Shown one piece after another: positions 515 to 27,468 of a stretch of DNA of 32,552 nt (position 1 is its first letter; each line of letters starts with the position of its first letter). Source of the stretch: Bacteroidales bacterium (GTDB lineage: Bacteria > Bacteroidota > Bacteroidia > Bacteroidales > JAGOPY01). The stretch lies in the NCBI GenBank assembly GCA_019429045.1, contig JAHYJL010000011.1, positions 1-32,552 of the forward strand, given 5' to 3'. The translations under genes were made by a program, and so were the position numbers. The notes beneath the pieces are model-generated. The model made no database searches. It was not told where the DNA came from and saw only the letters and a list, made by a program, of their open reading frames with translations.

Positions 515-548
515 GAGGGTGTATCAAAAGTCTATGCAATCGACTTAC

Positions 549-632
549 TGCCTGGATTTTGGTCGTGCTCCAACGACTAAAGCCATTGGTTCCGAGTATG
601 TTACAAAGGTTGGAACCGACGGCTTCAGTCGT
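549..632 (+). repeat. REP-like hairpin, copy 1 (interrupted at its 3' base by the IS110 element)
   Basis: tgcctggattttggtcgtgctccAACGACTAAAGCCATTGGTTCC...GGAACCGACGGCTTCAGTCGT; about 21-bp imperfect stem (573-632); near-identical in reverse complement to 27315-27400. Confidence 0.85.
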
Positions 633-668
633 ATTCTAAGACTTATACAAACATTTTTAATTATTTTT

Positions 669-1667
669 TTATGCAGCTGCATATTTGTGAGTATCCACGT
701 ACGGAGTTCCTCTTGTGGCCACTGCAAATATTCTCGCCAGGATCTTATTCCGGATTATGTTTAGGGTTGACATCTTTGACTTTCCTGATTCAGATCGACG
801 GTTATAATACGCTTTCATTTCAGGATTGTACAGAATAGCACTCAGAGCGCAAGAATGCAATAACGATTTGATCTTCTTGTTTGCCAGGTGATTTACCTTT
901 GTTTTACCCTTGATGCTGGTTCCTGATTGGTAAGGAAAAGGTGCAGTACCCGCATAGCTTGCAAACTTTCTCCATTCGCTAAACAAGATAAAGCCATGAG
1001 TTAAAACGATCATGTAGTAAGCTGTTTGTGGACCAACCCCCTTAATACTGCAAATCATCTCGAACAAGTGATTTATGTTTTGATCCTTCTGGATTGTATG
1101 AATCAATTTCAGGATAATTCGTTCAATCTGCTTGCTCAGGTAATGAATCATTCTGTCATGAATTTGAAAGGAATCAGGGTCTTGGTTTTTTTGAAGAAAG
1201 AGAGTGTTCTCTTTCAAGCTTGCCTGATAACCGGCCCTCTGCACGACCAGCCGATTTCTAAGGGATAATAAGTGACGAAGTTGATCAATGATCCGGGCAG
1301 GCATTTGATAGGGTACAATCTCATCTTTTCGCCGGTAGGCATATAAGGCAATTTTGGTGGCGTCAATGCGATCCTCCTTGCCCCGAACAATGCCCATGGA
1401 CCGATGCAGTTCCAGGCCGGGGATAAGGGTAAAATAATAGCCTGTGGAACTTAAAAAGCACGATAATCCATATGAATACAACCCGGTGTGCTCAAATGCA
1501 AACAGAATCGATTCTTTAGGTGTTACAAGGCTTTTTTCGACCCATGCGATGAGTTTTTTATACCCGCCAATGGTGTTGTCAAACCTACTTTCCTGACGGG
1601 CAAGATGCATCCTGGCATCAATCCAGCTCTTACTGACATCAATGCCGATTGTTTCTGAAAATTTCAT
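669..1667 (-). CDS. IS110-family transposase (DEDD + Transposase_20 domains)
   Basis: IGIDVSKSWIDARM N-terminal DEDD motif; IKGVGPQTAYYMI...FASYAGTAPFPYQSGTSIKGK C-terminal domain with candidate catalytic Ser. Confidence 0.95.
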   Translation of the reverse strand: MKFSETIGIDVSKSWIDARMHLARQESRFDNTIGGYKKLIAWVEKSLVTPKESILFAFEHTGLYSYGLSCFLSSTGYYFTLIPGLELHRSMGIVRGKEDRIDATKIALYAYRRKDEIVPYQMPARIIDQLRHLLSLRNRLVVQRAGYQASLKENTLFLQKNQDPDSFQIHDRMIHYLSKQIERIILKLIHTIQKDQNINHLFEMICSIKGVGPQTAYYMIVLTHGFILFSEWRKFASYAGTAPFPYQSGTSIKGKTKVNHLANKKIKSLLHSCALSAILYNPEMKAYYNRRSESGKSKMSTLNIIRNKILARIFAVATRGTPYVDTHKYAAA

Positions 1668-1689
1668 AACTTTACACGTTTTATGTTAA

Positions 1690-1862
1690 TAAAATAGGTT
1701 GCTGAACTAAAACCTTTAAAAGGCCCAGAGCCTAAAATTCTAACTGGTTCTTTGCAACCGAGTAAAAGAATGGGGACTAATACGACTGAAAGGCCTTGAA
1801 CCTGGTCGGACTAATAGTTCACCCCATTCTTTTCTTGTAAAGGTAATAGATCAGGCGTCTAG
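1690..1862 (-). ncRNA. Putative IS110 bridge RNA (target-binding loop 1764-1833, donor-binding loop 1697-1759)
   Basis: 12-bp stem AAAAGAATGGGG (1764-1775)/CCCCATTCTTTT (1822-1833) encloses ACGACTGAA and GTCGGACTA, matching the two target halves. GGTTGC (1697-1702)/GCAACC (1754-1759) encloses ACCTTTA and ATTCTAA, matching the two element ends. Confidence 0.85.
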
Positions 1863-1866
1863 GGGA

Positions 1867-1874
1867 CAAATCTA
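1867..1874 (-). promoter_or_regulatory. -7 box TAGATTTG for the bridge RNA; partner -33 TTTG at 648-651 (minus) is joined only in the circular form
   Basis: Minus strand across the RE-LE junction: TTTG-TATAAGTCTTAGAATACCTT(20 nt)-TAGATTTG, fitting the Bacteroidota TTTG/TAnnTTTG consensus. Confidence 0.7.
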
Positions 1875-2074
1875 AAGGTTGGACTACTAAAAAAACGAGA
1901 CTTTTTGACTTTTGATACAACCTCTTGCATAGGCTAATAAGACACTCTCCGTTAAATTCATCTCCCAAAAACTAAACTTCACCAGCCCCATCCTTCACTT
2001 CACCTTTTTCCGGTTTACTTCCCCTTATGGGCGGCATATCTTTGTTTCATCATTCATCATTAAAAATTAAAGCC

Positions 2075-25029: not shown

Positions 25030-27468
25030 TCAGATATTCAGCAGGTATTGCAGGGTGAAATTGCGGGGGGGCTGGATATCCCCGGGCCGTCCCATGTGTT
25101 CCTTGTTGGTGAGGTTCCTGATGATGATACTGATCCTGGAAGCAGATGAAACCTGCCATGAAAACCGCCAGTCGATGATCACCGCTCCTTTGTCATTTTC
25201 CTGCCGGTATTCCTTCAGGCCCGGAAAAATCTCCTGCCCAAGGATCTTCTCTTCAAAAGCCATGTCGATCCGTTCGATGAAACTCTGGTAGCTGACGGTC
25301 AGGCCCGTGGAGAACTTCTGAAGGCTGGCGGATATATCTCCCTTGGCAGAATGGCGGTAACGGTATTTGAGAATTTTCTGTTCCGTGCTGTCTGCCGAAA
25401 GATCAACCGGATCCATGTAGGTATAGCCGGCAAAAAAACGGATATTTGCTTTGCCGGCAGGGCCCTGCCCGGTTATGGAGAAATCGATGCCTCTGATCCG
25501 GGCATCGCCCGTGTTGATCGACATAAACCCCAGGTGTTCCAGAGTGGGGATCTGAACGGAATCGGGTTTGTAAATTCCGAAAGTAAATTCCATCATGTGC
25601 TGGTATTCGGTCCAGAAGCCTGCAATATCAAGATAGCCGTTCCATTTCCGGATGCGGAGCCCCTGTTTCAGGCCGATCTCGGTGCTCCAGCCCGTTTCCG
25701 GCTCCAGGTCGGGGTTCGGGAAAATCCTCAGGGCGCCCAGGCTGGTGGAGGTATATTTTTCGGCCATCGACGGGTAGCGGTAACCCTGTCCGAATGAGGC
25801 CCGCAGGAATGTATATCTGGCCGCCTGCCAGTTGAGGCCCGTTCGCATCACGGGACTGGAACCATTGTCGGTATGGTCGATGGAATACCATTCCCAACGG
25901 AGGCCTAAACTAAACGATAAGCGGTTCAGAGGCTTGTAGTCGGCCTGCGAATACAGGGCCAGGGTAGAGCCGCGGTGATTACCATACAACTCGGAGGTAC
26001 CGATAGTGTAAGAAGAGGCCAGCCCGGCCGCCAGGTGGAGCTTGTCGCTGAATTCCCGCTGGTACTGGTATTCCCCGAAAAAATAATCGGACCCGTTTTC
26101 CTTATCTGGATTGTCTTTAAAATGGTTCTCTATTTTATAATATCTCGTGTTCAGGCTGTGGCGACCCTCTCTTTTATCATAATACCGCACAAAGGGATCA
26201 ATATTGAACCGGTAGCCGGTATTGGGGCTGACAGCCTCCGGGTTTTGGAGAAAGGCGCCCGAATCGGCATCCTGCCAGATTAAAAAATCGGAAAAATCCT
26301 GGAACTGGAAATTGGTGTAAAATCCTGTCTGCAAACTTTTTATCTTCTTTGGATTAAACTTTATGCCTGCGTTGAGCCGCCCGTAATACAATTGGTTTTT
26401 ATCACGGTATCCCTCATCGTAATAGGCACTGCCTCCGGCTGAAATATCGAACGATCCCGTTTTCCGCAGATGGGAGAATTTCATATTGCCCATCAGTGGG
26501 TAGTGGTCCCACCACCAGGACAGTTCATCCCGCAATGGCTGCAGGTACATGCCGGCAGAGATATCAACGGTGGTCATGGGTTGGAGACCCGGAGACATGG
26601 TCCGGAGGTTAATCACGCCATTCAGGGCCGAAGATCCGTAGAGCGCCGAGGAGGCTCCCTTTATGATCTCCACCTGGCCAATATTTTCAATGGGCAATGT
26701 GCTCCATTTGATGTCATTCACGTCTCCCGTTAGCAGCGGCAAACCGTCCAGCAGCATCATCACCCGGCTGCCGGCGCCATAGCTGTAGCCGCTTCCGCCG
26801 CGGATGTTCGCCTGGCCATCCATTACATCCACACCCGGCACCAGGCTGATGGTCTCATCCAGCTTGCGCGTGATCACATTTTCAATGAAACCGGCCGGTA
26901 TTACTTCCATGGAGACAGTGACGTCCGACAGACGTTGTTCATAAAGCGAAGCGGACACCACTGCCGTATTCAGCTCAAATGCCCGCGGCTGCATCCTGAC
27001 CTGCTTTTCCAATACCTCTCCGGATTTTATGAAAAAAGTTATTGTCTCGTCAGAATATCCTATAAATTTATAAGTGAACGTATATTGGCCTTCTTTCAGC
27101 ACGATCTCAAATTGCCCGTTCTCATCGGTCGCGCGGCCGTTGCCGTCGCTGATCAGAATATTCACGCCGGGAAGTGCCTCACGGTTTTGGGCATCAGAGA
27201 CCTTTCCGCGGAAGATGGCATCCTGGGCAGAAATTGTTCCTGTTAACAGAAGCAGCAGAATTATAAGTTGTATGAAAAGCCAGAGCGCTTTAACCGACGG
27301 GTATTTTATAGTAGTCCGACGACTGAAGCCGTCGGTTCCAACTTTTGTAACATACTCGGAACCAACGGCTTTAGTCGTTGGAGCACGACCCAATTCCAGG
27401 CAATTAACCGACGGGTTAACCCGTCGGTTAAGATTATTCAATACCGGTATTTCCTGAGGGATTCTCAA
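25030..27468 (-). CDS. TonB-dependent receptor; N-terminal part of the ORF is read through a REP repeat and the start codon is uncertain
   Basis: Carboxypeptidase-regulatory-like domain, plug (DGQANIRGGSGYSYGAGSRVMMLLDGLPLL), barrel; ORF track start is TTG. Confidence 0.88.
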   Translation of the reverse strand: MRIPQEIPVLNNLNRRVNPSVNCLELGRAPTTKAVGSEYVTKVGTDGFSRRTTIKYPSVKALWLFIQLIILLLLLTGTISAQDAIFRGKVSDAQNREALPGVNILISDGNGRATDENGQFEIVLKEGQYTFTYKFIGYSDETITFFIKSGEVLEKQVRMQPRAFELNTAVVSASLYEQRLSDVTVSMEVIPAGFIENVITRKLDETISLVPGVDVMDGQANIRGGSGYSYGAGSRVMMLLDGLPLLTGDVNDIKWSTLPIENIGQVEIIKGASSALYGSSALNGVINLRTMSPGLQPMTTVDISAGMYLQPLRDELSWWWDHYPLMGNMKFSHLRKTGSFDISAGGSAYYDEGYRDKNQLYYGRLNAGIKFNPKKIKSLQTGFYTNFQFQDFSDFLIWQDADSGAFLQNPEAVSPNTGYRFNIDPFVRYYDKREGRHSLNTRYYKIENHFKDNPDKENGSDYFFGEYQYQREFSDKLHLAAGLASSYTIGTSELYGNHRGSTLALYSQADYKPLNRLSFSLGLRWEWYSIDHTDNGSSPVMRTGLNWQAARYTFLRASFGQGYRYPSMAEKYTSTSLGALRIFPNPDLEPETGWSTEIGLKQGLRIRKWNGYLDIAGFWTEYQHMMEFTFGIYKPDSVQIPTLEHLGFMSINTGDARIRGIDFSITGQGPAGKANIRFFAGYTYMDPVDLSADSTEQKILKYRYRHSAKGDISASLQKFSTGLTVSYQSFIERIDMAFEEKILGQEIFPGLKEYRQENDKGAVIIDWRFSWQVSSASRISIIIRNLTNKEHMGRPGDIQPPRNFTLQYLLNI
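27290..27431 (-). repeat. REP-like hairpin copy 2 with flanking TTAACCGACGGGT repeats and a 28-nt perfect palindrome
   Basis: Hairpin stem 27315-27381; TTAACCGACGGGT at 27290-27302 and 27404-27416; palindrome TTAACCGACGGGTTAACCCGTCGGTTAA at 27404-27431. Confidence 0.88.

What the first reader, a model, noticed from the sequence alone, without database searches (positions are those of the whole stretch)
1764..1833. IS110 bridge-RNA target loop readable from sequence and matching its own insertion site
In the non-coding region upstream of the transposase, a perfect 12-bp stem (1764-1775/1822-1833) encloses an internal loop. Its two sides are ACGACTGAA (1782-1790) and GTCGGACTA (1805-1813). The insertion site, reconstructed across the element, is TTCAGTCGT|TGGACTACTA. 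One loop side is the exact reverse complement of TTCAGTCGT. The other matches GT(C/T)GGACTA, the single difference being a G-T wobble-compatible position. This is the arrangement expected for the left and right target guides of the bridge RNAs described for IS110/IS621, but in a Bacteroidota element with a GT (AC on the transposase strand) core and a different target.
Basis: partly seen in the sequence, partly recalled or inferred. Interest (0 to 1): 0.93.

Follow-up and report, generated by a model that had tools for sequence, protein, structure and literature searches.

The report
Insertion element guided by bridge RNA
A mobile DNA element in this (probably Bacteroidota) genome carries a small RNA whose two loops spell out both its own ends and the repeated genome site it inserts into, so it is a well-supported but not new-in-kind member of the RNA-guided IS110 bridge-RNA systems.

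Summary
An intact IS110 recombinase (669-1667, minus) lies in an element at 633-1877, with an AC core (tnp strand) at each end. Its 5' non-coding end encodes a two-module RNA. A covariance model built from 19 relatives, this element left out, finds it at 1830-1697 with 118.6 bits (E 3.7e-26), the only match at E <= 0.001 in the 2.9-Mb genome.

The element sits in a ~170-bp palindromic repeat present in dozens of copies.

Across 37 distinct elements, target guides match their own flanks and not others' (0 of 20,000 permutations). Left donor guides equal their own right ends in 25/25 resolved cases. A Bacteroidota-type promoter (TTTG...TAnnTTTG) is split across the two ends and joins only in the circle; this layout is conserved.

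This is a new member of a known kind. Differences from IS621: NC core instead of CT, 9-nt right target guide, sigma-ABfr-type junction promoter. Transcription and activity are untested.

The parts
633..1877 (-). IS110-group insertion element (1245 bp between the core dinucleotides)
   Evidence: junctions defined by the uninterrupted target in dozens of paralogous repeats and by the LE remnant in L002
631..632 (.). core dinucleotide GT (+) / AC (tnp strand), right-end side
   Evidence: sequence; conserved donor core in relatives
1878..1879 (.). core dinucleotide GT (+) / AC (tnp strand), left-end side
   Evidence: sequence
669..1667 (-). recombinase, 332 aa, intact
   Evidence: Pfam DEDD_Tnp_IS110 3e-15 and Transposase_20 4.7e-19; PDB ISCro4 2.8e-21, IS621 2e-18
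1690..1862 (-). predicted bridge RNA (5' end inferred from the -7 box; leave-one-out model match covers 1697-1830)
1822..1833 (-). target-binding-loop outer stem, 5' arm (3' arm 1764-1775)
   Evidence: compensatory pairs
1764..1775 (-). target-binding-loop outer stem, 3' arm
1805..1813 (-). left target guide UAGUCCGAC (7 nt left target + core AC)
   Evidence: equals repeat consensus and L002 flank; covaries with flank in relatives
1791..1803 (-). inner hairpin of the target-binding loop
1782..1790 (-). right target guide UUCAGUCGU (complement of AC-GACTGAA)
1779..1781 (-). putative handshake guide AUU, complementary to the RE end AAT
   Evidence: 12-nt perfect complement across RE/target junction (I4); position as in IS621 (PMC11208158)
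1754..1759 (-). donor-binding-loop outer stem, 5' arm (3' arm 1697-1702)
   Evidence: sequence; one search recovers pairs of this module
1697..1702 (-). donor-binding-loop outer stem, 3' arm
   Evidence: sequence
1737..1743 (-). left donor guide UUAGAAU = last 7 nt of the element's right end
   Evidence: 7/7 in 25 of 25 resolved elements
1721..1733 (-). inner hairpin of the donor-binding loop
1712..1718 (-). right donor guide UAAAGGU = complement of AC-CTTTA (core + left end)
   Evidence: sequence; core base tracks guide base in most relatives
1867..1874 (-). TAGATTTG, match to Bacteroidota -7 box TAnnTTTG, in the left end
   Evidence: consensus from PMC7366714
648..651 (-). TTTG, match to Bacteroidota -33 box, in the right end; 20 nt from the -7 box only in the circle
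515..632 (.). left part of the interrupted palindromic repeat (terminal repeat GAGGGTGTATCAAAAGTC at 515-532)
1880..1924 (.). right part of the interrupted palindromic repeat (terminal repeat 1907-1924)

Best explanation
The locus is an IS110-group insertion sequence. When it is excised as a circle, a promoter forms across the joined right and left ends and makes a ~170-nt bridge RNA from the left end. The RNA's first loop base-pairs with the target (TAGTCCG-AC-GACTGAA, in a genome-wide palindromic repeat), and its second loop base-pairs with the circle junction (TTAGAAT-AC-CTTTA). A DEDD/serine recombinase tetramer then exchanges strands at the AC core. Shown here: the intact recombinase gene, exact boundaries, RNA structure with compensatory changes, guide/target and guide/donor complementarity and their covariation across relatives, and empty target copies. 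Inferred from IS621: circle intermediate, transcription, RNP assembly and strand exchange.
For: Leave-one-out covariance model (19 relatives) hits 1830-1697(-) at 118.6 bits, E 3.7e-26, the only hit at E <= 0.001 in the genome. RNAalifold on 22 elements gives two stem-loop modules, with 14 of 20 pairs showing compensatory changes. Target guides against own flanks over 37 distinct elements: LTG 271.5 vs 227.1+-4.2 and RTG 271.0 vs 236.5+-3.5 in permutations, none of 20,000 reaching. Left donor guide = own right end 7/7 in 25/25, over 8 different right-end sequences. Five copies of one element in G384 share flank sequence at the guide-facing CACTC|TCGAACT. 29 exact empty target 16-mers vs 0 in the control. 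Recombinase homologous to ISCro4 and IS621 of solved structure. Junction promoter layout in 19/25 circles vs 0/25 integrated flanks.
Against: No transcript data. Only one intact copy and one remnant in this genome, so recent activity is unproven. MFE folding of the single RNA (z -3.7) mispairs the guides with each other and does not by itself show the open loops. No Rfam family matches. About a third of the distant relatives had weak or unresolved flank matches, as expected from truncated ends or wrong boundaries but not individually explained.
Confidence: 0.96

Rival explanations
1. The loop/flank matches arise because the element inserts by short DNA homology, with target-like sequence captured in the element, and no guide RNA is involved.
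For: The matches themselves are at the DNA level and would look alike for one element.
Against: Guides sit at fixed positions of a conserved RNA structure with compensatory changes. One guide is same-sense and the other reverse-complement, on opposite sides of one loop. The same RNA carries a second loop matching the element's own ends. Homologues ISCro4/IS621 have solved structures, and IS621 is RNA-guided (PMC11208158).
Confidence: 0.02
2. Relic: a genuine bridge-RNA element now inactive, its only other trace being a left-end remnant.
For: One full copy and one 43-bp remnant in the genome; the occupied site carries a private substitution.
Against: Open reading frame intact, all four guides still match, split promoter intact; assembly fragmentation may hide further copies.
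Confidence: 0.2
3. Chance complementarity in AT-rich non-coding DNA.
For: None beyond the short length of each guide.
Against: Two 9-nt guides, two donor guides, conserved structure, and 0 of 20,000 permutations.
Confidence: 0.005

Closest known systems
IS621 (E. coli, IS110 group; PMC11208160, PMC11208158)
   Same: DEDD/serine recombinase; RNA in the long 5' left end; target loop 5' of donor loop; LTG 9 nt incl. core; same-sense left guide and antisense right guide; handshake position complementary to the donor end; promoter formed at the RE-LE circle junction; target inside a dispersed palindromic repeat
   Different: recombinase only distantly related (E 2e-18); core AC here and NC (AC/GC/TC) in most relatives, versus CT; right target guide 9 nt including core versus 4 in IS621 (longer RTGs are reported for other orthologues); promoter matches the Bacteroidota consensus instead of sigma-70; repeat is a ~170-bp MITE-like palindrome rather than REP
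ISCro4 (PDB 9t56)
   Same: closest solved structure by sequence (E 2.8e-21)
   Different: distant; its RNA was not compared here
ISEc21 / IS1111-type seekRNA elements (PMC11187229)
   Same: non-coding-region RNA guiding target choice
   Different: IS1111 group has the RNA downstream of the transposase and reversed guide order; here it is upstream as in the IS110 type
REP-targeting IS110 elements ISPpu9, ISPpu10, ISPa11, ISRm19 (PMC1525189)
   Same: IS110 elements specific for dispersed palindromic repeats
   Different: different hosts and repeats; guides not examined in that 2006 paper

Membership tests
IS110 family, IS110 group (bridge RNA) | DEDD_Tnp_IS110 plus Transposase_20 recombinase | tested here: met
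   homology to IS621 and ISCro4
IS110 family, IS110 group (bridge RNA) | catalytic D, E, D, D and S residues | tested here: met
   aligned with ISCro4: GIDVSK, FEHTG/MEATS, KEDRIDA/KTDAVDA, QSGTS/ESGSS; residue function taken from PMC11208158
IS110 family, IS110 group (bridge RNA) | structured ncRNA in the left end, upstream of the recombinase, with two internal loops | tested here: met
IS110 family, IS110 group (bridge RNA) | first loop complementary to target, LTG to bottom and RTG to top strand, core included | tested here: met
IS110 family, IS110 group (bridge RNA) | second loop complementary to the RE-LE donor junction | tested here: met
IS110 family, IS110 group (bridge RNA) | promoter assembled at the circle junction | tested here: met
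   sequence layout only; activity not tested
IS110 family, IS110 group (bridge RNA) | RNA expressed and bound by the recombinase; RNA-dependent recombination | not testable with these tools
   needs small-RNA-seq and in vitro recombination
IS621-like subgroup | CT core dinucleotide | tested here: not met
   core AC here; AC, GC or TC donor cores in 24 of 25 resolved elements
IS1111 group | RNA in the right end and long sub-terminal inverted repeats | tested here: not met
   RNA upstream of the gene; right end only about 36 bp after the stop

The most novel reading that the evidence does not exclude
The element represents a Bacteroidota-wide IS110 clade that departs from IS621 in two linked ways: the core is N-C instead of C-T, with the variable base often tracked by the RTG/RDG core contacts, and the bridge RNA is driven by a sigma-ABfr promoter whose -33 and -7 boxes lie in opposite ends, so that guide RNA is made only from the excised circle. 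In several relatives the core left at the two ends differs, as if the target core stays at the left junction and the donor core at the right one.
Probability: 0.6. Interest if true: 0.5.

Novelty: new member of a known kind. Interest (0 to 1): 0.45.

Why it matters
It shows that target and donor guides of an undescribed IS110 element can be read from sequence alone and validated by relatives. It also adds a Bacteroidota clade with a different core preference, a full 9+9-nt target reading and a host-matched circle promoter. Such recombinases are candidates for programmable DNA insertion in Bacteroidota. The dispersed repeat with 29 perfect target sites gives the element many possible landing sites, paralleling IS621 in REPs.

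Tried and rejected
Rfam scan: no bridge-RNA family, only a sub-threshold chance hit. Single-sequence MFE folding pairs the two target guides with each other and was not used for the model. The genome-contig scan found only one relative and viral contigs none. Same-family genomes lack the element. The first regular expression for the right-end boundary was wrong and was redone. For the ATAGATT/TC subclade (L076, L080-L091) the right donor guide matches the target core rather than the donor core; I could not decide between a boundary shift and a real cross-pairing and did not use those as evidence for the core rule. Terminal-repeat hits of the host repeat show only short spacings by eye, so no autonomous partner transposon was identified.

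Full report
WHAT IS THERE. The window carries an intact 332-aa IS110-type recombinase on the minus strand at 669-1667 (Pfam DEDD_Tnp_IS110 and Transposase_20). Its closest solved relatives by sequence are the ISCro4 transposase (9t56, E 2.8e-21) and IS621 (8wt6, E 2e-18), with the D/E/D/D/S positions retained in the ISCro4 alignment.

BOUNDARIES AND TARGET. The left and right flanks (up to 632 and from 1880) belong to one ~170-bp palindromic repeat with inverted ends GAGGGTGTaTCAAAAGTC. Searching the joined flanks in the same genome gives 70 matches, the best uninterrupted one 97% identical across the junction; 62 terminal-repeat matches are found with one mismatch allowed. Aligned empty copies read TTCAGTCGT-CGGACTACT. 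The exact 16-mer TAGTCCGACGACTGAA occurs 29 times in 2.9 Mb, 0 for the reversed control. So the insertion site is not merely reconstructed: it exists uninterrupted many times. The core is AC on the recombinase strand (631-632 and 1878-1879). A 43-bp left-end remnant elsewhere (L002) is flanked by TAGTCCGAC, again the guide sequence. Note: my joined row was one base short, hence the gap; one search used the correct join.

THE RNA. Read on the minus strand, the RNA has two modules. Target module: stem 1822-1833/1764-1775, left target guide UAGUCCGAC, inner hairpin, right target guide UUCAGUCGU, then AUU, which is complementary to the element's right end AAT; together UUCAGUCGUAUU is a 12-nt perfect complement of the RE/target junction (I4). 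That is the position of the handshake guides in IS621 (PMC11208158). An LTG of 9 nt including the core, and core inclusion in the guides, follow the published scheme (PMC11208160).

TEST ON RELATIVES. Protein searches over about 1,580 genomes and one genome-contig scan gave relatives at roughly 32-51% identity. An alignment of 22 RNAs yields an RNAalifold consensus of exactly these two modules, 14 of 20 pairs with compensatory changes. A covariance model built from 19 relatives without this element finds the window's RNA at 1830-1697 with 118.6 bits, E 3.7e-26, the only match at E <= 0.001 in the genome, and it also finds most of the remoter relatives. For 37 distinct elements I took the guides at structure-defined positions and asked how well they match anywhere in their own versus other elements' flanks: sums 271.5 (LTG) and 271.0 (RTG) against permutation means 227.1 (sd 4.2) and 236.5 (sd 3.5); none of 20,000 permutations reached the observed value. 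In most clear cases the best match abuts the conserved left end CTTTA or right end TAGAAT. In 25 elements with resolved ends the left donor guide equals the last seven bases of the own right end in all 25, over eight different end sequences (TTAGAAT, ATAGAAT, TTGGAAT, ATAGAAA, TTAGAAC, ATAGAAC, ATAGATT, ATAGATA). Five copies of one element in genome G384 sit at five places with differing outer flanks that share CACTC|TCGAACT, the guide-facing part. The relatives are not phylogenetically independent, so the permutation result is a strong indication rather than an exact probability.

PROMOTER. The left end holds TAGATTTG and the right end holds TTTG; in the circle they stand 20 nt apart, matching the Bacteroides consensus TTTG (-33) and TAnnTTTG (-7) (PMC7366714). 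In 25 resolved elements YTTG lies 17-18 nt before the left end in 19 circles and in 0 integrated flanks (Fisher P 1.2e-8). [quoted passage not shown] This implies, but does not show, that guide RNA is made mainly from the circle.

DIFFERENCES FROM IS621. IS621 and its orthologues use CT, with T almost invariant (PMC11208158). Here the donor core is AC, GC or TC in 24 of 25 resolved elements, so the second base is C. In most of them the right donor guide base tracks the first core base (AC with GGU, GC with GGC, TC with GGA). A subclade (L076, L080-L091) breaks this rule, and in several elements the core at the left junction differs from that at the right (e.g. L005 TC/AC, L068 GC/AC). That is what top-strand exchange downstream of the core would leave, but boundary errors are not excluded.

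VERDICT. A genuine, well-supported bridge-RNA element of the IS110 group, found by sequence reading and confirmed by relatives. Bridge RNAs were predicted for 85.7% of ISfinder IS110s (PMC11208160), and IS110 elements in palindromic repeats have been known since IS621 (PMC1525189), so the kind is known. The full-text library held no study of bridge RNAs in Bacteroidota, so the member and the core/promoter details appear undescribed there, within that limited library.

Noticed in passing
515-632 and 1880-1924; 27304-27402; genome-wide: The target is a ~170-bp palindromic repeat with 18-bp terminal inverted repeats, dozens of copies, some with nested GACGGGTTAACCCGTC palindromes, some in arrays (G000:C218, copies 150 bp apart). 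No autonomous partner was identified.
   Followed up: partly
L002 (G000:C172:26969-27011): Solo left-end remnant: TAGTCCGAC|CTTTAGATTTG...CTTTAC then GACTACC; the cut falls at an internal AC followed by GACT, as if a second recombination used an internal pseudo-core to delete the element.
   Followed up: partly
L005, L068-L070, L080-L084, L097: Core dinucleotide differs between left and right junction of the same element; may record which strand's core is kept at each end.
   Followed up: partly
1880 (window): The occupied repeat copy alone carries T where the 29 exact empty target sites carry C, next to the core on the left-target side; the base faces the putative donor-loop handshake position.
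   Followed up: no
L031 and the L018, L021, L025, L033 group: Some 32-37% identical relatives give only weak or no match to the RNA motif or model; their RNA may be a different structural type.
   Followed up: no
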